NCBI GenBank assembly: GCA_020441605.1
Contig: JAGRLX010000408.1
Location: 1-11,773, forward strand
Source of the DNA: Alphaproteobacteria bacterium
GTDB lineage: Bacteria > Pseudomonadota > Alphaproteobacteria > Rhizobiales > Aestuariivirgaceae
DNA: 11,773 nucleotides
Direction of reading: 5' to 3'
The position numbers and the translations under genes are program-made. This document shows positions 1,637 to 11,342 of this stretch, piece by piece. Position 1 is the first letter of the stretch. Each line of letters opens with the position of its first letter. The notes beneath the pieces were generated by a model. It saw nothing but the letters and a program-made list of their open reading frames with translations, did no database searches and was not told where the DNA came from.

Positions 1637-2395
1637 TCAGGCCGTTCGCCGTGTTTTCACCAGACGTCGCGTGATCCGGAAGTAACAGGCGTAAGGCAGC
1701 AGTCGCGCGAGCTTGAGCAGGACGATGAAACGGGTTGGAAAGGCGATCTCGAACTGGTGCCGCACCAACCCCGCGACGATGCGGGCGGCGGCGGTCTCGG
1801 GAGACATCAGGAAAGGCATCCGGAAGTCATTCTGAGCCGTCAGTGGAGTCTCGACGAAGCCCGGATTGACGAGGCTCACGGCTACGCCATCTGCGTCCAG
1901 CTCAGGCTTCAGGCTCTCGGCAAGATTGATGAGGGCAGCCTTGCTGGGTCCATAGGCGGCGGCCTTGGGCAGACCGCGATATCCGGCGACGGAAGCAATC
2001 CACGCGATATGTCCAGAGCGCCTGCGGCGCATGGATGGAAGGAGTGCGGCAAGCGCGTGAATGACGCCGAGATAATTGACTGCGTTGGTGACTGTGAAGT
2101 TGGCGACATCGAAATCACCAACATCCAATGGCCGATAGGTTCCCGCGGCGAGAACGGCCAGGTCAATTGCTCCGAGTTCGCGACAAATGCGGTCATGGGC
2201 ATCCTGAACGGCTTGGGGATCGGTCACATCGAGTGGATAGGCGTGTATTCCATGGCCGAGGCCTTGCAACTTGTCGGCCGACCTAGCGGAAGCCGCGACG
2301 ATGACGCCACGCCGCGCCATCAGGAGCGCGACTTCCCGGCCTATTCCGGTCGAGGCGCCGGTGATCCAAGCCACCCGCCACGGCAGATCAGACAT
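1637..2395 (-). CDS. Short-chain dehydrogenase/reductase (SDR), third gene of the sigma-factor operon
   Basis: A classical SDR of 252 residues. It has the nucleotide-binding TGASTGIG (12-19), D56 in the PLDVTD segment, an AAG variant of the NAG motif (83-85), the catalytic set N107, S135, Y148 and K152 (YGPSK), and PGFVETP (178-184). The C-terminus, rich in Arg and hydrophobic residues (about 220-250), could touch the membrane. It should carry out an NAD(P)-dependent oxidation or reduction of an alcohol/ketone. The start overlaps the chrR stop by one base (TGATG), so it is translationally coupled and belongs to the rpoE-chrR operon. Given the lipid genes in the divergent operon, a fatty-acyl or lipid-derived substrate is a reasonable guess, but the sequence does not show it. 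Confidence 0.88.
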   Translation of the reverse strand: MSDLPWRVAWITGASTGIGREVALLMARRGVIVAASARSADKLQGLGHGIHAYPLDVTDPQAVQDAHDRICRELGAIDLAVLAAGTYRPLDVGDFDVANFTVTNAVNYLGVIHALAALLPSMRRRRSGHIAWIASVAGYRGLPKAAAYGPSKAALINLAESLKPELDADGVAVSLVNPGFVETPLTAQNDFRMPFLMSPETAAARIVAGLVRHQFEIAFPTRFIVLLKLARLLPYACYFRITRRLVKTRRTA

Positions 2396-3048
2396 CAGAT
2401 GCCGATGAAGGGTTGTATCAGACGCGCGGAAAGTGACTTGAAGCGAGTCGGTGCCTCGATGGCCACCGCGCAGTAGCAGTCCTCCCCAGCCTCAACGACC
2501 GGCCGGTGTTCGACCTCCTCATCCAGATCGGCGACATCGCCAGGCCCGAATCGGCCCATCTCATCATGATAGGCGCCGCGCAGAACCAGCGTCAGTTCCT
2601 CGCCGCCATGACCATGCTCGGGCATCGCTCTTCCCGGCGCGATCCGCATGAGAACCAGTTTGCCGCCATCGGGAGACGACAGGGGAACGTGATGCAGGGC
2701 AACACCCGGAGCTTTTCGCTTCCACGGCAGATCGCGGAGCCCCACACATCCCAGCGCCCTTGAAAGCGGCACCGGAACTTCGTCCTGAGCCGAGGTCCGG
2801 GCAGGGAAGCGGTGCAGCGTCGCACGGTCGAGCAGGCCCAAGGTTCGCATCTTGCATTCCGACGAAACCGCCGTGGCATTCAGATCGAGCATGAGCTGAC
2901 CGCCCATCGTCTCTGCCTGCCGTACCGCTGCACGGCAGGCCGGACACCGCGCAATGTGCGAGGCTGCGACGATGGTCAGCGCCTCGCCGAGCGTCGCGGC
3001 CGCATAGGCCAGGATCGTCGCATGGTCGAGGTGGTGGCGAATATTCAC
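2395..3048 (-). CDS. chrR: ChrR-type zinc-cupin anti-sigma factor
   Basis: The protein has 217 residues. The N-terminal anti-sigma domain carries H6, H31, C35 and C38 (HIARCPAC), the same numbers as the zinc ligands known in Rhodobacter sphaeroides ChrR. The C-terminal cupin (about 110-200) carries H145, H147 and E151 (PEHGHGGEE) and H181, matching the second zinc site with a shift of four residues. ChrR binds its ECF sigma factor in the cytoplasm and releases it when singlet oxygen is sensed, which involves the cupin domain. The gene starts with GTG overlapping the rpoE stop by four bases (GTGA), as expected for a sigma/anti-sigma pair made in matched amounts. All ligands are intact, so the switch is probably functional. 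Confidence 0.95.
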   Translation of the reverse strand: MNIRHHLDHATILAYAAATLGEALTIVAASHIARCPACRAAVRQAETMGGQLMLDLNATAVSSECKMRTLGLLDRATLHRFPARTSAQDEVPVPLSRALGCVGLRDLPWKRKAPGVALHHVPLSSPDGGKLVLMRIAPGRAMPEHGHGGEELTLVLRGAYHDEMGRFGPGDVADLDEEVEHRPVVEAGEDCYCAVAIEAPTRFKSLSARLIQPFIGI

Positions 3049-3653
3049 TTCAGATTCTCCAATGTCTTGCGCAGGCGGCCATAGGCCAGTCTCATGCGGG
3101 ATTTCACGGTTCCAAGCGGCAGATTGAGACGCTCGGCTATGGCGGATTGTGGAACGTCCTCGATGAAGGAAAGGATCAGTATCTGCTTCTGATCTTCGGG
3201 AATGGACTCAAGGGCCCTCATGACGCCTTCTCTTTGTTGCTGGAGGGCCAACTCTTCGTCCGGCCCGATCCCGTCCGACGGACAGTCGAAATCCTCGATT
3301 GCCACGTGGTTGACGTTTTGATTGCGCCGCAGCCGGTCAATCCGCAGATTGCGGGCGATGGTGAAGACCCACCCGGCCACGCTTCCCTTGTCAGGCGCGT
3401 ACAATCCAGCCTTGGTCCAGACTGCGATCATCGTGTCCTGAACCAGATCTTCCGCAAGTTCGGCGCTCGCGCCTTTCCTCAACATGAAACTCTTGATGCG
3501 CGGCGCCAACCGGTCGAAGAGTTCGGCAAATGCCACACGATCAAGGTTCTTCGCTACAGCCTCAATAAGGCGGCGCAGAACCTTGTCTTCCAAGCGCCGA
3601 TCCGGCGGATGCTGTGGTTCGTCCATACGAAGGCCCGGTGTTCTCACCGTCAT
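3045..3653 (-). CDS. rpoE: ECF sigma factor RpoE (ChrR-partnered, ECF11-like)
   Basis: An ECF sigma factor of 202 residues from the chosen start. Region 2 spans about 43-111 (LAEDLVQDTMIAVW, GWVFTIARNLRIDRLRR) and region 4 about 139-196 (IPEDQKQILILSF, helix-turn-helix near SAIAERLNLPLGTVKSRM). It directs RNA polymerase to stress promoters and is held inactive by the ChrR encoded next to it. The frame is open up to a GTG at 3674, but that codon lies only 8 nt beyond the -10 element of the operon's own promoter and would be almost leaderless. The ATG at 3653 leaves a short leader with a GGGA motif. A third choice is ATG at 3626. The promoter layout suggests the factor activates its own operon. 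Confidence 0.94.
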   Translation of the reverse strand: MTVRTPGLRMDEPQHPPDRRLEDKVLRRLIEAVAKNLDRVAFAELFDRLAPRIKSFMLRKGASAELAEDLVQDTMIAVWTKAGLYAPDKGSVAGWVFTIARNLRIDRLRRNQNVNHVAIEDFDCPSDGIGPDEELALQQQREGVMRALESIPEDQKQILILSFIEDVPQSAIAERLNLPLGTVKSRMRLAYGRLRKTLENLK

Positions 3654-3681
3654 TGTTCCCAGCTTTTTTCGCACTCGTCCA

Positions 3682-3707
3682 TACGCCGCAAACAGCAGTC
3701 TGGATCA
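3682..3707 (-). promoter_or_regulatory. ECF sigma (RpoE-type) promoter of rpoE-chrR-SDR
   Basis: On the minus strand TGATCC (3707-3702) is followed after 16 bp by CGTA (3685-3682). This layout matches the -35/-10 pattern recalled for sigma factors of the RpoE-ChrR (ECF11) group. The spacing is identical in the divergent promoter at 3729-3754, and the two share TGATCCAG. Transcription should begin near 3676, just ahead of rpoE. Assignment to RpoE is inferred from motif, position and symmetry. Confidence 0.8.
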
Positions 3708-3728
3708 GTCCGAATTCTGTGCGCCGGG

Positions 3729-3754
3729 TGATCCAGTACCCATTGGGATCCGTA
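3729..3754 (+). promoter_or_regulatory. ECF sigma (RpoE-type) promoter of the lipid-modification operon
   Basis: TGATCC (3729-3734), 16 bp, then CGTA (3751-3754): the same boxes and spacing as the divergent rpoE promoter. The first gene starts 31 bp after the -10 element. This ties the flavin oxidase, DUF1365, methyltransferase and DUF2177 genes to the sigma factor encoded alongside. Confidence 0.8.
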
Positions 3755-3785: not shown

Positions 3786-5126
3786 TTGAAAAAACTCAAT
3801 ATCGCTGTCGTTGGATCAGGAATTTCAGGCCTTTCTGCCGGATGGCTGCTGTCGCAGCGCCATCGGGTATGCCTGTTTGAAGCAGAAGCCCGGATTGGTG
3901 GCCATGCCAACACGGTCATGTGCCCAGTGCCGGAAGGTGAAGTCGCCGTCGACACCGGGTTCATCGTCTACAATGAATTCGCCTATCCCAACCTGGTCGC
4001 ACTGTTCAGCTATCTCGACATTCCGACCACCGCCACGAACATGGGATTTGCCGTTTCCCTCGATGGTGGCCGTACCGAATACGCGGGCCGCGGACCTGGT
4101 CAGCTTATCGGATCACCTCGCAATGTCTTCGATCCGGATCACTGGCGGATGCTGGCAGGAATAGCGCGGTTCTTCAGGACCGCATTGCCGCGCGTCGAAA
4201 CCATGTCGGATGATGTTTCGCTGGCAGAGTTCCTTGCGTCGGAAGACTACGGCGAAGCCTTTGTCAATCGCCACCTGCTGCCCATGGCGGCGGCCATCTG
4301 GTCATCTGCTCCGGAACAGATGCTGCGCTACCCGGCCCGGTCGTTTCTACGCTTCTTCCACAACCATGGATTGCTGAAATTCCGCGACCGGCCAAAATGG
4401 CGGACCGTTGTCGGAGGGTCATGCGAATACGTAAGGCGCCTTGTTGCCGACAGCCCCATGACCTTGGCGGTGGGCCAGCCCGTGCGCAAGCTCCATCGCA
4501 ACGGCGGTGAGACGATTGTCGAACTGGCCGATGGGTCTCGGCACTGCTTCGACCATGTGGTCATCGCTACCCACGCAGACCAGGCGTTGGAGCTTTTGGC
4601 AGCTCCATCAGCTAGCGAGCGCGACCTGCTTTCAGCATTCACCTACTCGATGAACCATGCGGTGCTGCACAGCGATGCGCGCCTGATGCCAAAGCGCCGG
4701 AAGCTTTGGTCGAGCTGGAACTACATGGGCGCGGCCGGTGCAAGGACCTGTTCGGTCACATACTGGATGAATGCCCTCCAGCCGCTTCCGACCGCCACGG
4801 ACCTCCTGGTATCCCTCAATCCGGCCATCGCACCTGACCCCTCGAAGGTGGCAGCCCGCTTCGATTATGCGCATCCGATCCTCGATGCGCGGGCCCTGGC
4901 TGCGCAACGGAGCATATGGGACCTGCAGGGACAGCAGAACACCTGGTATTGCGGCGCGCATTTCGGCGCGGGCTTCCACGAAGATGGCTTGCAGGCCGGG
5001 CTGGCAGTCGCAGAGGCCTTGGGCGGCCTCCCGCGCCCGTGGCGACTCGCAAACCCGTCGGACCGCATTCATGTGCGCCCGGTCACGGTGCCGTCGTTCG
5101 AATCCCGTCTCGAGGCGGCGGAATGA
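3786..5126 (+). CDS. FAD-dependent amine-oxidase-like oxidoreductase
   Basis: The protein has 446 residues. The N-terminus has an FAD-binding Rossmann loop, GSGISG (10-15), the acidic E32 ending strand 2, and RIGGHANT (36-43). VDTGFIVYNE follows at 55-64, a hallmark of the bacterial 'NAD/FAD-binding protein' branch of the amine oxidase superfamily found next to DUF1365 and cyclopropane-synthase-like genes. In Rhodobacter sphaeroides a related gene is among RpoE targets, and genes of this set are linked to oxidation of methylated fatty acyl chains to furan fatty acids; that link is from memory. No transmembrane segment is obvious. The start is TTG at 3786: an in-frame stop lies upstream at 3753-3755 and the FAD motif begins at residue 10, so no ATG is available. 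No clear ribosome binding site precedes it. The stop overlaps the next start (ATGA). Confidence 0.88.
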   Translation: MKKLNIAVVGSGISGLSAGWLLSQRHRVCLFEAEARIGGHANTVMCPVPEGEVAVDTGFIVYNEFAYPNLVALFSYLDIPTTATNMGFAVSLDGGRTEYAGRGPGQLIGSPRNVFDPDHWRMLAGIARFFRTALPRVETMSDDVSLAEFLASEDYGEAFVNRHLLPMAAAIWSSAPEQMLRYPARSFLRFFHNHGLLKFRDRPKWRTVVGGSCEYVRRLVADSPMTLAVGQPVRKLHRNGGETIVELADGSRHCFDHVVIATHADQALELLAAPSASERDLLSAFTYSMNHAVLHSDARLMPKRRKLWSSWNYMGAAGARTCSVTYWMNALQPLPTATDLLVSLNPAIAPDPSKVAARFDYAHPILDARALAAQRSIWDLQGQQNTWYCGAHFGAGFHEDGLQAGLAVAEALGGLPRPWRLANPSDRIHVRPVTVPSFESRLEAAE

Positions 5127-5923
5127 AACCCAGATCCAGTCTCTATGTCGGTGAAGTTGTTCACAGGCGCATCAGGCCCGTGCGGCACGACCTGCGATAC
5201 CGTGTTTACAATCTCTTCCTCGATGTGGATGAATTGCACAATATCCACGAGCGGATCAGATGCCTGAGCTATAATCGCTTCAACTTGTTCTCGCTTCGCG
5301 ACCGCGATCATGGCCCGGGGGACGGAACCCCGATCGCCGAGCATGTGTGGCAGGTGGCACGCCAATCGGCGACGGCCGGACCGGTGCAGCGAATCTTCAT
5401 GTTTACCTATCCACGCGTCATGGGTTACGTGTTCAATCCCCTGACGGTCTATTACTGTTTCGATGCCGCAGACCAGTTGTGTCTCATGATCTATGAGGTC
5501 AACAATACCTTCGGCCAGCGCCACAGCTATGTAATACCGGTAAGCGGCGACAGACTTCACGCTTGCCGGAAGTCGTTCTACGTGTCGCCGTTCAATCGTG
5601 TGGAAGGTACCTATCGGTTCAGTGCCGCCCCACCGGACGAGTCCCTGAAGCTGTCGATCATCCTCTCGACGCCAGAGGGTGTGTGCCTTTCAGCGTGGTT
5701 CAGCGGCCAACAGGTCGCCTTGACCGACGGCAATCTGTTGCGGTCGTTCATCAGCCTTCCGCTTCAGCCATTCAAAGTCATCGGAGGCATTCACGCCGAA
5801 GCGGCGAAGCTTTGGCTCAAGGGGCTCAGGGTGCAGCCGCGACCCAGTCCGCCCGCCCAGGATGTTTCATTCACAATCCCGGAGACGCAAGATAATGACC
5901 GCGCCAGCCTACGCCACCCGTGA
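5123..5923 (+). CDS. DUF1365 family protein
   Basis: A 266-residue member of the DUF1365 family, recognised by the conserved opening LYVGEVVHRRIRPVRHDLRY (8-27) with YNLFLDVDEL after it, and by the central segment FTYPRVMGYVFNPLTVYYC with EVNNTFGQRHSY. The biochemical role is not established. The family is regularly encoded between an FAD amine-oxidase-like protein and a cyclopropane-fatty-acid-synthase-like methyltransferase, exactly as here, so a part in fatty acyl modification is likely by context. It shares the ATGA overlap (5123-5126) with the upstream gene, with GAGGCGG ahead of the start. Its 3' end overlaps the next coding region by about 29 bp. No signal peptide is seen. Confidence 0.88.
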   Translation: MKPRSSLYVGEVVHRRIRPVRHDLRYRVYNLFLDVDELHNIHERIRCLSYNRFNLFSLRDRDHGPGDGTPIAEHVWQVARQSATAGPVQRIFMFTYPRVMGYVFNPLTVYYCFDAADQLCLMIYEVNNTFGQRHSYVIPVSGDRLHACRKSFYVSPFNRVEGTYRFSAAPPDESLKLSIILSTPEGVCLSAWFSGQQVALTDGNLLRSFISLPLQPFKVIGGIHAEAAKLWLKGLRVQPRPSPPAQDVSFTIPETQDNDRASLRHP

Positions 5924-7154
5924 GCCGGGTCTCCCGGCCCAAATATTGGCCATCGGACTGAAGCTGGTTCAGCCAAGAATTGCCGGCAGACTGTCGATCC
6001 ATTTGCCTTCGGGACGGTGCCTGGACATCGGTGACCGGAGGATCAGCCAAGCGGCCGAACTGCATTTGCGCAGCTGGAAGACTTTGTGGCGATCCATGCG
6101 CCGGTCTTCAGTCGGATTTTGCGAAAGCTTCATGAAGGGGGAATGGGATAGTCCTGCCCCGGAGCGCGTCTTTGCGTTCTACCTGCAGAACCGCGAGTCC
6201 CTTGACCGGGCCGGGCGCTTCTGGATGCGTCGAAGCAGGGCAGTGCGGGCCTGGCATTTGCGTCGTGACAACGACAGGCCGGGTGCCCGGCGAAATATCG
6301 AAGCCCACTATGATCTCGGCAATGACTTCTACAGCCTTTGGCTCGACGCAACGATGACCTATTCGTCAGGGCTGTTCGACCCCGGCATCGACGACCTCGA
6401 ATCGGCCCAATGCGCCAAGTACCGGCTGATTGCAGACGCACTTGATCTCCAACCCGGCCATCGCATGCTTGAGATCGGTTGTGGCTGGGGTGGCTTCGCC
6501 AAAGTTGCCGCCGAGCGCGGCGCGCAGGTGAAAGCCGTCACGCTGTCGGCAGAGCAGTTGGCATACGGCAGGAGCAGGGCAACGGACCGTATGTCTTTCG
6601 AACTTATGGACTATCGGGATGTCTCGGGCACCTACGACCGGATCGCTTCGATCGAAATGATCGAAGCGGTGGGCGAATCCCATTGGTCAACATATTTCCG
6701 CACCCTTTCCGAACGGCTTGCGCCGGGAGGTGTGGCCGCGATCCAGGCCATCACAATCGACGAGAAGCTGTTCCCGGCCTATCGTAGCCACGCGGACTTC
6801 ATTCAGCGGCATATCTTTCCGGGCGGCATGCTGCCGACCGTCGACATCATCCGGCAGCAAGCCGCGGCGCGCGGGCTGACCTTCGAGACGGTGCGGTGCT
6901 TCGGCCGCGACTACGCACGGACGCTGCGGCTATGGCGTGAACGGTTTGAGAAGGTCTCGCAGCAACTTGGTGAGCTGGGCTTTGACGAAACCTTCAGGCG
7001 GAAATGGCGACTTTACTTCTGCTACTGCGAGGCGGGGTTTGAACACGGTGCTATCGATGTCGGCGTCTATCGATTGACCAAGCCGGGTGATGGCGCGGCC
7101 AGTGATCAGACTCAAATGACCGGCCGAAAGGACTTAAAAGGAACAAAGAAATGA
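5895..7154 (+). CDS. Cyclopropane-fatty-acid-synthase-like SAM-dependent methyltransferase
   Basis: The protein has 419 residues. It has an N-terminal lipid-contact domain (about 1-130), EAHYDLGNDFY (136-146), the SAM-binding LEIGCGWGG (192-200), EMIEAVG (254-260), FIQRHIFPGGMLP (302-314) and Y340. Members transfer a methyl group from S-adenosylmethionine to the double bond of membrane phospholipid acyl chains. By recalled alignment with E. coli Cfa, the bicarbonate ligand C139 corresponds to S158 and H266 has no His equivalent near 287-290, while E239 (E257) and Y317 (Y340) are kept. This fits the Cfa-like methylases that give methylated acyl chains as well as it fits cyclopropane formation. 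The start ATG 5895 has GGAG 10 nt upstream; an in-frame ATG at 5862 would overlap DUF1365 more. The stop overlaps the next start (ATGA). Confidence 0.9.
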   Translation: MTAPAYATREPGLPAQILAIGLKLVQPRIAGRLSIHLPSGRCLDIGDRRISQAAELHLRSWKTLWRSMRRSSVGFCESFMKGEWDSPAPERVFAFYLQNRESLDRAGRFWMRRSRAVRAWHLRRDNDRPGARRNIEAHYDLGNDFYSLWLDATMTYSSGLFDPGIDDLESAQCAKYRLIADALDLQPGHRMLEIGCGWGGFAKVAAERGAQVKAVTLSAEQLAYGRSRATDRMSFELMDYRDVSGTYDRIASIEMIEAVGESHWSTYFRTLSERLAPGGVAAIQAITIDEKLFPAYRSHADFIQRHIFPGGMLPTVDIIRQQAAARGLTFETVRCFGRDYARTLRLWRERFEKVSQQLGELGFDETFRRKWRLYFCYCEAGFEHGAIDVGVYRLTKPGDGAASDQTQMTGRKDLKGTKK

Positions 7155-7555
7155 CCGCAGGACTTGTAGCCTTCGTCCTCACGCTGGTGGCCTTTGGCGT
7201 GATCGATGCCGTCTGGCTCAAGGCCATGGCCCAGCGGGCCTACGCGGCTGAAATCGGCGCGCTCCTGCGCGACAAGCCGAGGTTCATTCCCGCCTTACTG
7301 TTTTATCTGATGTTCGCGGCAGGGCTTGCAATCTTTGCGGTGAACCCTGGTATCGCGGCGAAATCTCCGCCAGCTGCCATCGCGTCGGGAGCGTTGCTTG
7401 GGTTGGTGGCCTACGGAACCTACAATCTCACGAATCTTGCAGTCATCCGCGGCTACTCGGCGAGAATTGCCACGATCGACCTGTTATGGGGTGTCGTCGC
7501 GTCGGCCTCGACGGCCGGCATCGTGACCTGGATCGGCATGAAACTGATCGCCTGA
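7151..7555 (+). CDS. DUF2177 family four-helix membrane protein
   Basis: A 134-residue, very hydrophobic protein with about four transmembrane helices (roughly 4-24, 45-65, 75-97 and 108-130). Family marks are VIDAVWLK (17-24) in helix 1 and LVAYGTYNLTNLA (85-97). The family has no known activity. It is the last gene of the lipid operon, with an ATGA overlap with the methyltransferase and AAAAGGA upstream of the start. In this setting it may anchor or assist the acyl-modifying enzymes at the inner membrane; that is inference. Confidence 0.88.
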   Translation: MTAGLVAFVLTLVAFGVIDAVWLKAMAQRAYAAEIGALLRDKPRFIPALLFYLMFAAGLAIFAVNPGIAAKSPPAAIASGALLGLVAYGTYNLTNLAVIRGYSARIATIDLLWGVVASASTAGIVTWIGMKLIA

Positions 7556-7626: not shown

Positions 7627-8682
7627 ATGTATGCCGGGAAACTGACAGAGTGGACCGTGCCGGCCGATTCTAATCACCCTTCTTCCCAGCGCCCTACGGC
7701 TCGCGAAGTCGCAGCGCGCGCCGGTGTGTCCATCTCGGCTGTTTCGCGTGCTTTCACGGCGGGCGCCAGTGTGGCGCCCGCCACGCGCGAACGCGTGCTC
7801 TCGGCGGCCCGCGAACTGGGTTATCGCACCAACCTGCTCGCCCAGAGTTTGATGACCGGCCGCACGAAACTGATCGGGCTCGTATCCAACAACTTCGACA
7901 ATCCGGCCTTCATGGAAATCTTCGACCTTTTCACAAGAAGGCTGCAGCAGCATGGTCTACGTCCGCTTCTTGCCAATCTCTCAGGCACGACCGAAACGTC
8001 GGCTGCGCTCGACATGCTGCTGCAATACAAGGTCGACGGCGTCATCGTTGCATCGTCAACTCTGCCACAGCCCTTCGTCGATGGGTGCTGCGCCGCAGGC
8101 CTTCCCCTGGTCCATGCCTTTGGCCGCCCACAGCCTTCCCGGGGCTTCGCGGTGGCGGGCGTCGACAATATCGCTGGCGGGTGCCTGGCGGCGGCCACGT
8201 TGGTCGATCGCGGGTATCGGCGGATCGCCTTCCTCGGTGGTCCGAAGTCCGCGACCTCCACAATCGATCGGCTCGCGGGCCTGACCAGTGAACTCGCAAG
8301 ACACGGCCTTGATCTCCATGCGACAGTTTTCGGCTCGTCCTATGCCCACCAGGACGGTCAATCACTCATGCACGCGCTCTTGAGACAGGATGGTTTCGAC
8401 GCCGTCTTCTGTGGCGACGACATCCTTGCCATGGGAGCGCTTGATGCCTGCGTTGAAGCGGGTATCGCGGTGCCGGGCTCAGTCGGCCTCCTCGGATTCA
8501 ATGACATCGCCATGGCTACATGGCCGTCCTATCGCCTCACCACCATCCGTCAGCCGATCGGCGATATCATCAGCGCCGCCGTGGATATGGTCACGGCCAT
8601 CGTGGACAAGGATGCTTCGCACCCCGCCTCCCAGGTTTTCGGCTGTTCCCTCATCGAACGCGCCACGCTGAGACCCCGGTAA
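7627..8682 (+). CDS. LacI-family transcriptional regulator, probably of the adjacent cyclitol operon
   Basis: The protein has 351 residues. An N-terminal helix-turn-helix (about 24-44, TAREVAARAGVSISAVSRAF) is followed by the conserved RERVLSAARELGY and a hinge helix NLLAQSLM (69-76). A sugar-binding-like effector domain runs from about residue 80 (KLIGLVSNNFDNPAF) to the end and includes GVDNIAGG, FCGDDILAMGALD and LLGFNDIAMA. The hinge Leu of this family wedges into a central CG step, and a perfect palindrome with a central CG lies in the divergent promoter region of the neighbouring operon (11574-11589). The ATG at 7627 has AAGGGG just upstream and places the DNA-binding domain at the usual distance from the N-terminus; the frame is open further upstream into the DUF2177 gene, which is not credible. 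It converges on the aldolase gene with a 10-bp gap. Confidence 0.9.
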   Translation: MYAGKLTEWTVPADSNHPSSQRPTAREVAARAGVSISAVSRAFTAGASVAPATRERVLSAARELGYRTNLLAQSLMTGRTKLIGLVSNNFDNPAFMEIFDLFTRRLQQHGLRPLLANLSGTTETSAALDMLLQYKVDGVIVASSTLPQPFVDGCCAAGLPLVHAFGRPQPSRGFAVAGVDNIAGGCLAAATLVDRGYRRIAFLGGPKSATSTIDRLAGLTSELARHGLDLHATVFGSSYAHQDGQSLMHALLRQDGFDAVFCGDDILAMGALDACVEAGIAVPGSVGLLGFNDIAMATWPSYRLTTIRQPIGDIISAAVDMVTAIVDKDASHPASQVFGCSLIERATLRPR

Positions 8683-8692
8683 ACGGAGTGCG

Positions 8693-9523
8693 CTAGCCAG
8701 GTCCTATATTGATAATCACATCCTGCGCGGCCTGACGCACGGCCGAGATGGTCGGCCGGAGCAGCTCAATCCGGTCAAAGCTCTGAGGCTGATCGGCCAG
8801 AGACTTGCGGAGCGATGCGCCAAAAGCCTGGCGCAGTTCCGTTCCAATGTTGAACTTCTTCACGCGGTGATCGCGCGCAAGCCTTCGGCGCATGACGGTC
8901 GGAATGCCACTTCCGCCATGCAGTACAAGCGGCACCTGCGTCACCGCCTCGACGGCGTTCAAGGCGTCAAGATCTATCCCGTCGGTCATTTCTGTCTGCA
9001 GGTGAACGTTGCCGACCGACACGGCAAGCGCGTCGACGCCGGTTTCAGCTTCGAAGCGCGCCGCATCGGCCGGCGCGGTGAAAGCCGAAGGACGGCCGTC
9101 TGTATAGCCGACGAAGCCGACTTCGCCTTCAACCGAGACTCCGGCCATACGGGCCACGTCGACTACCTTGTTGGTCAGCGCGATGTTCGCGGAGAGCGGA
9201 AGGGCCGAACCATCGATCATCACCGAGGTGAAACCGTAGTCGATGCCGCGGATGCAGTCTTCCAGCGTCGTCGCATGGTCGATATGGCAGACGACCGGTA
9301 CCCGCGCCTGTTCGGCGAGATGCCGGAACATCCTACCCAGGATCGCAATCGGCGTGTGCTTTCGGCAGCCGGGACCGGCCTGCAGGATGATCGGCAGTCC
9401 AGTCTCGTCCGCTGCCTGGGTAAAGGCCAGAGCATCTTCCCAGCCGAGCACGACCAGGCCGGCGACGGCGTAACGCCCGGACGTGGCGTCGTCGAGAACC
9501 TGGCGAAGCGTCGCAACAGTCAT
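8693..9523 (-). CDS. iolJ: Class II aldolase, probable 6-phospho-5-dehydro-2-deoxygluconate aldolase (IolJ-like)
   Basis: A zinc-dependent class II fructose-bisphosphate aldolase family member of 276 residues. HIDHAT (80-85) gives catalytic D82 and zinc ligand H83; VEGEVG (131-136) follows; H174 (GNVH) and H202 (LHGGSG, 201-206) are the other zinc ligands; NIGT (225-228) binds phosphate. All catalytic positions are present. Sitting directly after iolB and iolC, it most likely splits 5-dehydro-2-deoxygluconate 6-phosphate into dihydroxyacetone phosphate and malonic semialdehyde, the last specific step of inositol breakdown. A tagatose- or fructose-bisphosphate specificity cannot be excluded from motifs alone. 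The start ATG overlaps the iolB stop (ATGA, 9520-9523). The frame is open upstream, but only as a shadow of iolB. Confidence 0.88.
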   Translation of the reverse strand: MTVATLRQVLDDATSGRYAVAGLVVLGWEDALAFTQAADETGLPIILQAGPGCRKHTPIAILGRMFRHLAEQARVPVVCHIDHATTLEDCIRGIDYGFTSVMIDGSALPLSANIALTNKVVDVARMAGVSVEGEVGFVGYTDGRPSAFTAPADAARFEAETGVDALAVSVGNVHLQTEMTDGIDLDALNAVEAVTQVPLVLHGGSGIPTVMRRRLARDHRVKKFNIGTELRQAFGASLRKSLADQPQSFDRIELLRPTISAVRQAAQDVIINIGPG

Positions 9524-10383
9524 TTGAATTTTGCGATCATGTCCTTGATGCCGGGAATGGTCTCGATCTGATAGGCATGCTCGGGCTGGAAGAACTGGAC
9601 GAGTGGCCGCTGGCTCAGGCCGCCGAGAATGGTGAAGTAATACATCTCGTATCCGGGTGCTGCCACGCAAGGGTGATAGCCCTTGTCGAGGATGATCGTG
9701 GAGCCGTCGACGATGTGATAGGCATCGCCGACCTTGCCGTCCTCGCGCTGCACCAACTGGAGCCCGAATCCGTGCGCGGGACGGAAACGGAAATTGTAGG
9801 TCTCGTCATGCCGTGTTTCGAGCGGTAGACGGTCGGTATCATGCTTGTGCGGCGGGAAACCGGACCAGCCGCCCGCTCCTACGGTGAAGAGCTCCGAAAC
9901 AAGCAGGCGGCCAACCTGGTCGCGGTACTTCGTGCCGAGGATATGCTTGATCTTGCGATGGGTCTTCGTGTCGTCGGACCCATATTGCACGAGGTCGATA
10001 TCTGCGGCACGGACCGCGAAGGGTTCGAGCTCGCCTTCGAATCGTGCACCCGCCACGAATACCTCGGCGGCATCCGATGTGCAGACCATGCGCGTCCTTG
10101 CGCCGGATGGAACATAGACACCCTCCGGTTCGCCATCCCATACATCAACGCCACGCTGGCCGATTCCGGTGTATCCCACGCCGTCCGTCTCGATGTCGAC
10201 ACAACCCGTGGCAGGCACAACGCATGTCTCGTAACCCGGAACCTGGTATTCGAAGGATTGCCCACGCGCGAGTTTCACGATGTTGAAGTAGTTCAATGGC
10301 ACCCGGGCGTCATTCACGTCGATGACCGGAGCGTTGTGGTTGTCTTGGGGCGGAATGTGCAAGGGATGCTCCTTTTCTGTCAC
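9520..10383 (-). CDS. iolB: 5-deoxy-glucuronate isomerase (IolB)
   Basis: A double cupin of the IolB/KduI family, 287 residues from GTG. The metal site is visible as FPPHKHD (176-182, H179 and H181), E194 in DETYNFRF, and H237 in KGYHP. Near the end, YEMYYFTILGG matches IolB proteins. It converts 5-deoxy-D-glucuronate to 5-dehydro-2-deoxy-D-gluconate, the substrate of the kinase encoded just before it. Two starts compete. GTG at 10383 overlaps the iolC stop by four bases (GTGA) and has AAGGA four bases upstream. TTG at 10362 has a textbook AAGGAG six bases upstream and gives a 280-residue protein beginning at HIPPQD. The conserved domain lies downstream of both. Confidence 0.93.
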   Translation of the reverse strand: MTEKEHPLHIPPQDNHNAPVIDVNDARVPLNYFNIVKLARGQSFEYQVPGYETCVVPATGCVDIETDGVGYTGIGQRGVDVWDGEPEGVYVPSGARTRMVCTSDAAEVFVAGARFEGELEPFAVRAADIDLVQYGSDDTKTHRKIKHILGTKYRDQVGRLLVSELFTVGAGGWSGFPPHKHDTDRLPLETRHDETYNFRFRPAHGFGLQLVQREDGKVGDAYHIVDGSTIILDKGYHPCVAAPGYEMYYFTILGGLSQRPLVQFFQPEHAYQIETIPGIKDMIAKFK

Positions 10384-11342
10384 TCGATCCTTGGGTGGTG
10401 TTCGATGAAATCATCAAGCTCCTGCAACGTAGGGCAGGCCGGGGCACAGCCCACGCGGGTAACCACGATGGCTGCCGCTGCAGTCCCGCGCCGCACAGCG
10501 GACGGCATGCCGAGGCCCGCCGCAAGTCCCGTCACCAGTCCAGCCATGAAGGCATCGCCTGCACCCGTCGGCTTCAGCGCGACCACGCGGTCGACTGGGG
10601 TCTCGAATGGCGGGCCCTCGCCAAATGTGATCGAGCCGCGTTCGCCCATCTTGTAGATGGCGACTCTGCCTTGTGATGACAGAGCACCGGCGAGATCAAG
10701 GCCTCCCGCCCCACCCGCCATGACGTCGAACTCGACGTCATTGCCGATCACCATGTCGGAGATCTCGGCTGCCTGACGGCAGGTCGCGGCCGCGTCGCTG
10801 GTGCTGTCCCAGGAATAGGGGCGGTAGTCGACGTCGAAGATCAGTGGAACCTGCGCGGCGCGTGCCCGCGACATCGCAAGAAAAGTGGCCGCCCGCGACG
10901 GCTCGACCGCAAGCGACGTTCCGGTCACGATCACCGCCGCGTAAGGCGCGAAATCAATCGGCGAGACATCATACGGCGCCAGATCGAAGTCCGCCGCGCC
11001 ATTGCGATAGATTACCGACTGACAGTTCTCGAGCCGGGTCTCCACCACCGCCAGCGAAGTTCGCAATTGCCCGCCCACGGCGCGGACATGGGTTCGGTCT
11101 ACGCCATAGCGTTCAAGCTCGCGCAGCACGAAGCGGCCAACGGCATCATCGGAGACGGTCGTGAGGAGTGCTGCCGCTCCACCGAGTTTGACGATCCCGG
11201 CTGCAATGTTCGCTGCCGAACCGCCCAACGCAGATGTGAAGCGGGAGGCCTCTTCGGCACGCGCGCCCGGTGGATCGGCGTAAAGGTCCATGCCCGCACG
11301 TCCGACGACCAGACAGCGGTTGCCGCGCAGCCGGATGTCCAT
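10380..11342 (-). CDS. iolC: 5-dehydro-2-deoxygluconokinase, stand-alone PfkB-family enzyme (IolC)
   Basis: A PfkB/ribokinase-family sugar kinase of 320 residues. Landmarks are GGSAANIA (40-47) for sugar binding, FDVDYRPYSW (169-178), a signature shared with IolC proteins, and PTGAGDAF (258-265) with catalytic base D263. It phosphorylates 5-dehydro-2-deoxygluconate at C6 using ATP. Many proteobacterial IolC proteins are about twice as long because of a fused C-terminal aldolase-like DUF2090 domain; this one ends after the kinase, and a separate class II aldolase gene stands two genes on. The ATG at 11342 follows a short upstream ORF after 3 bp and has only a weak ribosome binding site, so translation may depend on coupling. 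The stop overlaps iolB. Confidence 0.92.
   Translation of the reverse strand: MDIRLRGNRCLVVGRAGMDLYADPPGARAEEASRFTSALGGSAANIAAGIVKLGGAAALLTTVSDDAVGRFVLRELERYGVDRTHVRAVGGQLRTSLAVVETRLENCQSVIYRNGAADFDLAPYDVSPIDFAPYAAVIVTGTSLAVEPSRAATFLAMSRARAAQVPLIFDVDYRPYSWDSTSDAAATCRQAAEISDMVIGNDVEFDVMAGGAGGLDLAGALSSQGRVAIYKMGERGSITFGEGPPFETPVDRVVALKPTGAGDAFMAGLVTGLAAGLGMPSAVRRGTAAAAIVVTRVGCAPACPTLQELDDFIEHHPRIE

What the first reader, a model, noticed from the sequence alone, without database searches (positions are those of the whole stretch)
3682..3754. Matched divergent ECF promoters define an RpoE regulon across both operons
TGATCCAG followed by CGTA at the same 16-bp spacing from TGATCC occurs once on each strand, back to back, in the gap between rpoE-chrR-SDR and the four-gene lipid operon. 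I found no other TGATCC with this spacing to CGTA where I scanned upstream regions. This argues for direct positive autoregulation and control of the lipid genes by one sigma factor.
Basis: partly seen in the sequence, partly recalled or inferred. Interest (0 to 1): 0.75.

Follow-up and report, generated by a model that had tools for sequence, protein, structure and literature searches.

The report
Back-to-back singlet-oxygen sigma factor promoters
Two matching switches placed back to back let one stress sigma factor turn on both its own gene and the neighbouring genes for unusual protective fats; the arrangement is real and conserved, but its kind is already known from a well-studied bacterium.

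Summary
TGATCC-N16-CGTA occurs twice in the window, once per strand, at 3682-3707 (-) and 3729-3754 (+), where 0.03 is expected.

It is an ECF11 (sigmaE/RpoE-ChrR) divergent promoter pair. The - promoter faces rpoE-chrR-SDR; the + promoter faces ufaD-ufaO-ufaM-DUF2177, the furan-fatty-acid genes. In 71 loci with rpoE and ufaD divergent, the exact motif lies on the rpoE side in 64, the ufaD side in 45 and both in 41. Other spacers from N8 to N24 give three hits in all. The motif equals a published ECF11 consensus (PMC5507510); in Rhodobacter sphaeroides both operons have RpoE promoters and a positive loop (PMC3818230). So the instance is new, the kind known. Control in this organism is inferred: its genome is not held and no start site is mapped.

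My one-locus-regulon idea failed: photolyase carries the motif in 5 of 11 relatives.

The side lead is DUF2177, the operon's last gene: present in 24 of 31 related genomes with this sigma factor and 1 of 29 without, and singlet-oxygen-induced in Chlamydomonas (PMC4067076). Its function is unknown.

The parts
3682..3707 (-). ECF11-type promoter of rpoE-chrR-SDR: -35 TGATCC at 3707-3702, N16, -10 CGTA at 3685-3682
   Evidence: exact match; exact motif on the rpoE side in 64 of 71 related gaps
3729..3754 (+). ECF11-type promoter of the ufaD-ufaO-ufaM-DUF2177 operon: -35 TGATCC at 3729-3734, N16, -10 CGTA at 3751-3754
   Evidence: exact match; exact motif on the ufaD side in 45 of 71 related gaps
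3045..3653 (-). rpoE, ECF11-like sigma factor; ATG at 3653 is the likelier start. The open frame reaches GTG at 3674, which would fall at or before the inferred transcription start (about 3672)
   Evidence: Pfam sigma70 r2 and r4; best solved-structure relative is R. sphaeroides RpoE 2q1z/2z2s, E 3.5e-35; start codon argument from sequence
2395..3048 (-). chrR, zinc-type anti-sigma factor with cupin domain
   Evidence: NCBIfam TIGR02451 167.7 bits against a cut-off of 124.5; Pfam Cupin_7; R. sphaeroides ChrR 2z2s, E 1.4e-42
1637..2395 (-). short-chain dehydrogenase/reductase, third gene of the rpoE operon
   Evidence: Pfam adh_short; overlaps the chrR end by one base; an SDR match follows chrR in 14 of the 14 larger related loci fetched, in one of them (L182) about 1.6 kb further on
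3786..5126 (+). UfaD-like FAD oxidoreductase (proposed fatty-acyl desaturase step), TTG start
   Evidence: Pfam Amino_oxidase and NAD_binding_8; function by analogy to UfaD (PMC7380195)
5123..5923 (+). UfaO-like DUF1365 protein (furan-forming oxygenase by analogy)
   Evidence: Pfam DUF1365, 251.3 bits; 4-base overlap with ufaD
5895..7154 (+). UfaM-like SAM-dependent fatty-acyl methylase (CMAS family)
   Evidence: Pfam CMAS, 255.7 bits; overlaps ufaO
7151..7555 (+). DUF2177, small four-helix, probably membrane protein, last gene of the operon
   Evidence: Pfam DUF2177 (predicted membrane protein), 136.3 bits; model mean pLDDT 95.8, four helices; 4-base overlap with ufaM

Best explanation
The gap holds two independent promoters read by the same ECF11 sigma factor, which is encoded next door. 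At rest, ChrR binds the sigma factor. When singlet oxygen (or an organic peroxide) triggers ChrR loss, RNA polymerase carrying the sigma factor starts leftwards into rpoE-chrR-SDR (positive autoregulation, with ChrR co-made as a brake) and rightwards into ufaD-ufaO-ufaM-DUF2177 (furan fatty acid synthesis). In R. sphaeroides UfaD and UfaO are themselves needed for singlet-oxygen-triggered ChrR breakdown, so the right-hand operon would also feed back positively on the left-hand one. Shown here: the motifs, their spacing-specific conservation, gene identities and gene order. Inferred: transcription from these sites in this organism, the inducer, the feedback and the chemistry.
For: Both exact motifs, 0.03 expected. 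Conserved at N16 on both sides in named and unnamed Proteobacteria: 64, 45 and 41 of 71; at the other spacers from N8 to N24 there are three exact hits in all, one at N15 and two at N17, each on the ufaD side. Letter-shuffled gaps give 0.045 promoter hits per set of 54 gaps; 81 were seen (50 and 31). A preference not used in finding the sites: A or G after TGATCC in 98% of 111 promoters. ChrR and RpoE match the R. sphaeroides pair. The consensus equals the ChIP-seq consensus of P. syringae PSPTO_1043 (PMC5507510, passages); start sites were mapped downstream of TGATCC/CGTA in Shewanella (PMC4336711, passages); both R. [quoted passage not shown] Related genomes with this sigma factor hold more exact motifs per Mb than those without: 1.16 against 0.68.
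Against: No start site or expression data for this organism, and its genome is not held. The ufaD-side motif is missing as an exact match in 26 of 71 related gaps; among these are many Rhizobium/Agrobacterium-type loci that keep only the rpoE-side exact match (names, counts). The exact pattern is only modestly enriched genome-wide, so single matches elsewhere are mostly chance.
Confidence: 0.95

Rival explanations
1. The inverted pair CTGGATCA-N21-TGATCCAG is an operator for a dimeric regulator, and the CGTA matches are incidental.
For: The two 8-base boxes do form an inverted repeat in the window (sequence).
Against: The distance between the two boxes ranges from 2 to 264 bp among the 42 gaps with both (41 relatives plus the window), whereas the N16 distance to CGTA is fixed in them and other spacers are almost absent.
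Confidence: 0.02
2. Only the rpoE side is a working sigmaE promoter; the ufaD operon is driven mainly by another sigma factor.
For: The ufaD-side box is less conserved (45 against 64 of 71), and many Rhizobium/Agrobacterium-type loci keep only the rpoE-side exact match.
Against: In the window the ufaD-side box is a perfect match. Of 26 ufaD loci where I scored no divergent rpoE, 14 have the motif with at most one mismatch upstream of ufaD; leaving out L072 and L074, whose divergent RpoE match fell below my 34% identity limit, and L054, whose contig ends there, it is 11 of 23, against 0.7% of shuffled gaps. The R. sphaeroides operon is RpoE-controlled (PMC3818230). No sigma-70-like site was found in the gap.
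Confidence: 0.03
3. Chance match to a ten-base pattern.
For: Exact matches occur at about 0.7 per Mb even in related genomes without this sigma factor.
Against: Two matches in one short gap, facing the right genes, with 0.03 expected in the whole window and spacing-specific conservation.
Confidence: 0.005
4. The whole regulon is this one locus, a self-contained sigma factor module.
For: With the pattern restricted to A or G at position 7, 9 of 12 relatives had exactly two genome-wide matches, both in this gap. Without the restriction, 13 genomes with the pair average 1.85 exact sites outside the gap, no more than the 2.31 of genomes lacking the sigma factor.
Against: The unrestricted pattern shows an exact motif beginning 34-36 bp before the first ATG of photolyase in 5 of 11 relatives, and one more with one mismatch; 5 have none. 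Other genomes of that family with the sigma factor hold up to 12 exact sites (G069; G090 has 9, G080 7).
Confidence: 0.05

Closest known systems
Rhodobacter sphaeroides rpoE-chrR and RSP_1091-1087 operons (ECF11, sigmaE/ChrR)
   Same: rpoE-chrR next to the ufaD-ufaO operon, an RpoE-dependent promoter before each, positive feedback (PMC3818230, passages; the word divergent does not occur there, but the operon is said to lie upstream of rpoEchrR).
   Different: Here ufaM and DUF2177 are in the operon and the SDR is in the rpoE operon; in R. sphaeroides ufaM is RSP2144 and the operon carries RSP1089-1087 (PMC7380195), and an SDR is RSP_1087 (PMC5507510 table).
Pseudomonas syringae PSPTO_1043/1042
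   Same: Identical ChIP-seq consensus TGATCC-N16-CGTA, binding at its own promoter, singlet oxygen response (PMC5507510).
   Different: Orthologues of the lipid genes lie in a separate phrB-led locus.
Shewanella oneidensis RpoE2-ChrR
   Same: TGATCC/CGTA promoter with mapped start, autoregulation, photolyase and cfa in the regulon (PMC4336711).
   Different: The next locus number with an RpoE2 promoter is a Lon-domain gene (TGATCA box); no ufa operon is listed beside rpoE2.
Rhodopseudomonas palustris RPA2571-2568
   Same: ufaD, ufaO, ufaM as RPA2571, 2570, 2569, sufficient for furan fatty acid synthesis in a R. sphaeroides mutant (PMC7380195).
   Different: Its promoter and the nature of RPA2568 were not examined here.

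Membership tests
ECF11 sigma / ChrR anti-sigma pair | ECF sigma with regions 2 and 4, closest to R. sphaeroides RpoE | tested here: met
   (Sigma70_r2, r4); best chain 2q1z_A, E 3.5e-35, next best 4.2e-16
ECF11 sigma / ChrR anti-sigma pair | ChrR-family anti-sigma factor encoded directly after the sigma gene | tested here: met
   TIGR02451 above cut-off; genes overlap by four bases
ECF11 sigma / ChrR anti-sigma pair | N-terminal zinc motif HxxxCxxC and cupin HxHxxxE of ChrR (motifs recalled, compared on the 2z2s alignment) | tested here: met
   hiarcpac aligned to HLSLCDEC, and ehghggee aligned to DHGHRGLE
ECF11 promoter | TGATCC-N16-CGTA upstream of the sigma gene and targets | tested here: met
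   consensus from PMC5507510
ECF11 regulon | transcription from these sites depends on the sigma factor and rises with singlet oxygen | not testable with these tools
   needs RNA work
Furan fatty acid (Ufa) operon | UfaD (FAD oxidoreductase), UfaO (DUF1365), UfaM (CMAS methylase) together | tested here: met
   by domain family; not compared with the R. sphaeroides proteins themselves
Furan fatty acid (Ufa) operon | cells make 9M5-furan fatty acid | not testable with these tools
   needs lipid analysis

The most novel reading that the evidence does not exclude
DUF2177, the last gene of the operon, is an overlooked fourth part of the singlet-oxygen/furan-lipid module, shared by bacteria and green algae. 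As a membrane protein it may be the missing link that senses or passes on membrane singlet-oxygen damage (or furan lipids) to the cytoplasmic ChrR. Support: present in 24 of 31 related genomes with the sigma factor and 1 of 29 without; directly downstream of DUF1365 in 8 of those 24, and behind its own exact motif in one more; in 80 ufaD loci, 32 of 50 DUF2177 hits directly follow chrR, lie in the ufa operon, or have their own motif with at most one mismatch; a DUF2177, a DUF1365 and two CFA genes are among the SAK1-dependent singlet-oxygen-induced genes of Chlamydomonas (PMC4067076 table). The membership is fairly likely; the sensor role is speculation.
Probability: 0.2. Interest if true: 0.6.

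Novelty: new member of a known kind. Interest (0 to 1): 0.3.

Why it matters
It adds another lineage to a known singlet-oxygen response, with the promoter letters fully conserved, and shows by spacing-specific conservation that both promoters are under selection in many relatives. Its use beyond that is the lead on DUF2177: how a membrane oxidant makes the cell destroy a cytoplasmic anti-sigma factor is named as an open need in the ECF11 review (PMC6852236, passages), and a co-inherited, often co-regulated membrane protein is a direct candidate to test.

Tried and rejected
One-locus regulon: suggested, rejected when the photolyase loci showed TGATCCC sites that my A/G restriction at position 7 had hidden; the unrestricted search is.

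Operator (inverted repeat) reading: rejected by the variable distance between boxes.

One-mismatch genome scan: too noisy to read (23 to 205 hits per genome), not used.

Virus collection scan with the UfaD alignment found no relative.

Dropped or limited: in set B I left out L112, the same place as L002. Divergent RpoE was scored only at 34% identity or more, which left out L072 and L074. The display was cut in the middle (L039 to L044 not seen in full), but one search counted all 80. In one search my script's class 'operon after UfaM' held three hits; two of them (L066, L070) follow only a weak 28-29% CMAS match, so I do not count them. One search's background tiles include the real promoters. 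The Fisher test ignores relatedness, so its p-value is too small; the genomes are partly drafts and absences may be gaps. RpoE+ genomes are those with best E under 1e-40. That the window belongs to this family is not shown; it holds the closest RpoE matches I saw (up to 64% identity). The novelty of the DUF2177 link rests on the searches; the 2008 core-regulon paper (J Mol Biol 383, 713) was not held, so it may already list this gene.

Full report
Observation. The two boxes exist exactly as stated: TGATCC-N16-CGTA at 3682-3707 (-) and 3729-3754 (+); shuffles give 0.03 such matches in the whole window and none of 200 shuffles reach two. TGATCC alone is common (12 seen, 8.9 expected). With one mismatch there is one more site, 3153-3178 (-), inside rpoE. 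In 8 of the 40 RpoE-anchored loci (L132-L134, L139, L147-L150) that coding stretch is an exact match; it lies in sigma region 4, so I read it as coding constraint.

Surroundings. Left, reading leftwards: rpoE (3045-3653), chrR (2395-3048) and a short-chain dehydrogenase (1637-2395). Right, reading rightwards: a UfaD-like FAD oxidoreductase (3786-5126), DUF1365/UfaO (5123-5923), CMAS/UfaM (5895-7154) and DUF2177 (7151-7555). Neighbouring genes within each operon overlap by 1 to 29 bases, which supports two transcription units. ChrR passes the NCBIfam ChrR cut-off, and both proteins match the solved R. sphaeroides pair (2z2s, 2q1z). The first ORF start of rpoE (GTG 3674) would lie at or before the inferred start of transcription (about 3672); ATG 3653 is the better start.

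Conservation. Relatives were found by UfaD (the best 80 of 578 loci) and by RpoE (the best 40 loci). rpoE (34% identity or more) and ufaD are divergent neighbours within 1 kb in 54 of 80 and 18 of 40; one duplicate (L112) was dropped, leaving 71. Exact TGATCC-N16-CGTA: rpoE side 64 of 71, ufaD side 45 of 71, both 41 of 71. For the other spacers from N8 to N24 exact matches number three in all (one N15 and two N17, all on the ufaD side). Letter-shuffled gaps give 0.045 hits per set of 54. The base after TGATCC is A or G in 98% of 111 promoters, and A is favoured 10 bases after CGTA (54%), consistent with a start there. The distance between the two -35 boxes varies from 2 to 264 bp over 42 gaps (window 21), so these are two independent promoters, not one operator. 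Against the symmetrical reading: 26 of 71 gaps lack an exact ufaD-side box, among them many Rhizobium/Agrobacterium-type loci. Where I scored no divergent rpoE beside ufaD, 14 of 26 loci still have the motif with at most one mismatch, or 11 of 23 after leaving out two loci with a weaker RpoE match there and one whose contig ends.

Regulon. The window's genome is not held. Sixty genomes were drawn from the family of G003, the genome of L003 (record titled Aestuariivirga sp.); that the window belongs to it is not shown, but the closest RpoE matches I saw are there (up to 64% identity). Those with this sigma factor (31, best E under 1e-40) hold 130 exact motifs, 1.16 per Mb; those without (29) hold 67, 0.68 per Mb. 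In 13 of the 31, those with the divergent pair beside rpoE (one box imperfect in two of them), sites outside the gap average 1.85, no more than the 2.31 of genomes lacking the sigma factor, so the strict-consensus regulon there is small; other genomes of the 31 hold up to 12 sites (G069). It is not confined to this locus: of 12 relatives searched, 11 have a photolyase, and 5 of these have an exact motif beginning 34-36 bp before its first ATG, one more with one mismatch, and 5 none.

What is known. The consensus is identical to the ChIP-seq consensus of P. syringae PSPTO_1043 (PMC5507510, passages). Shewanella rpoE2 and pgpD starts were mapped after TGATCC/CGTA boxes (PMC4336711, passages). 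The R. sphaeroides sRNA Pos19 has the same promoter (PMC5036791, passage). In R. [quoted passage not shown] UfaM, UfaD and UfaO make furan fatty acids (PMC7380195, passages). A core regulon of about eight genes with rpoE-chrR and furan fatty acid genes is reviewed in PMC6852236 (passages). So the finding is a new instance of a known kind.

Side lead. DUF2177 is present in 24 of 31 genomes of that family with the sigma factor and 1 of 29 without; DUF1365 in 27 of 31 and 3 of 29. The test ignores relatedness and draft gaps. DUF2177 lies directly after DUF1365 in 8 of those 24 genomes (51 to 105 bases between the profile matches), and in G122 an exact motif ends 42 bases before the DUF2177 match. 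In the 80 ufaD loci, of 50 DUF2177 hits 13 directly follow chrR, 3 are in the ufa operon, 6 have an exact and 10 a one-mismatch motif upstream, 2 follow a weak CMAS match, and 16 have none of these; background tiles have the motif in 1.2% and 2.6%. Against it: of the 12 relatives searched first, 11 have DUF2177; in 10 of these it lies on another contig than the ufa operon with no motif of at most one mismatch upstream, and only G113 has it in the ufa operon. In Chlamydomonas a DUF2177 gene, a DUF1365 gene and two CFA genes are induced by singlet oxygen in a SAK1-dependent way (PMC4067076, table passage). A study of heliorhodopsin neighbours lists DUF2177-containing operons (PMC11109279, passage). 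Three papers of the library mention DUF2177; neither of the two I looked into ties it, in the passages seen, to a bacterial sigma factor, and the third was seen only in the listing. The model is a confident four-helix protein without a clear structural match.

Verdict. Observation confirmed, interpretation supported, kind already known; interest low to moderate, mainly for DUF2177.

Noticed in passing
7151-7555: DUF2177 ends the ufa operon and is co-inherited with the ECF11 sigma factor (24 of 31 against 1 of 29 genomes); a likely overlooked member of the singlet-oxygen module.
   Followed up: partly
3153-3178 (-): One-mismatch copy of the promoter motif inside rpoE region 4; exact in 8 of 40 RpoE-anchored relatives, probably coding constraint, but an internal promoter was not excluded.
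   Followed up: partly
gaps of L003, L136, L138, L141-L144 and others: In many relatives the two -35 boxes are only 2-6 bp apart (16 of 42 gaps), close enough that two polymerases may exclude each other; the window's 21 bp is looser.
   Followed up: no
L204-L208: The five exact photolyase sites of these relatives carry TGATCCC, unlike the A or G at position 7 of nearly all rpoE/ufaD promoters.
   Followed up: partly
199-1149, 7630-11342: Both operons are flanked by sugar genes: a periplasmic sugar-binding protein, a LacI regulator, a class II aldolase, a KduI/IolB protein and a PfkB kinase, looking like inositol or similar catabolism.
   Followed up: no
L002: The contig of L002 (VFKO01000228.1) is also 11,773 bases long, but its UfaD is only 57% identical to the window's; apparently a coincidence.
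   Followed up: no
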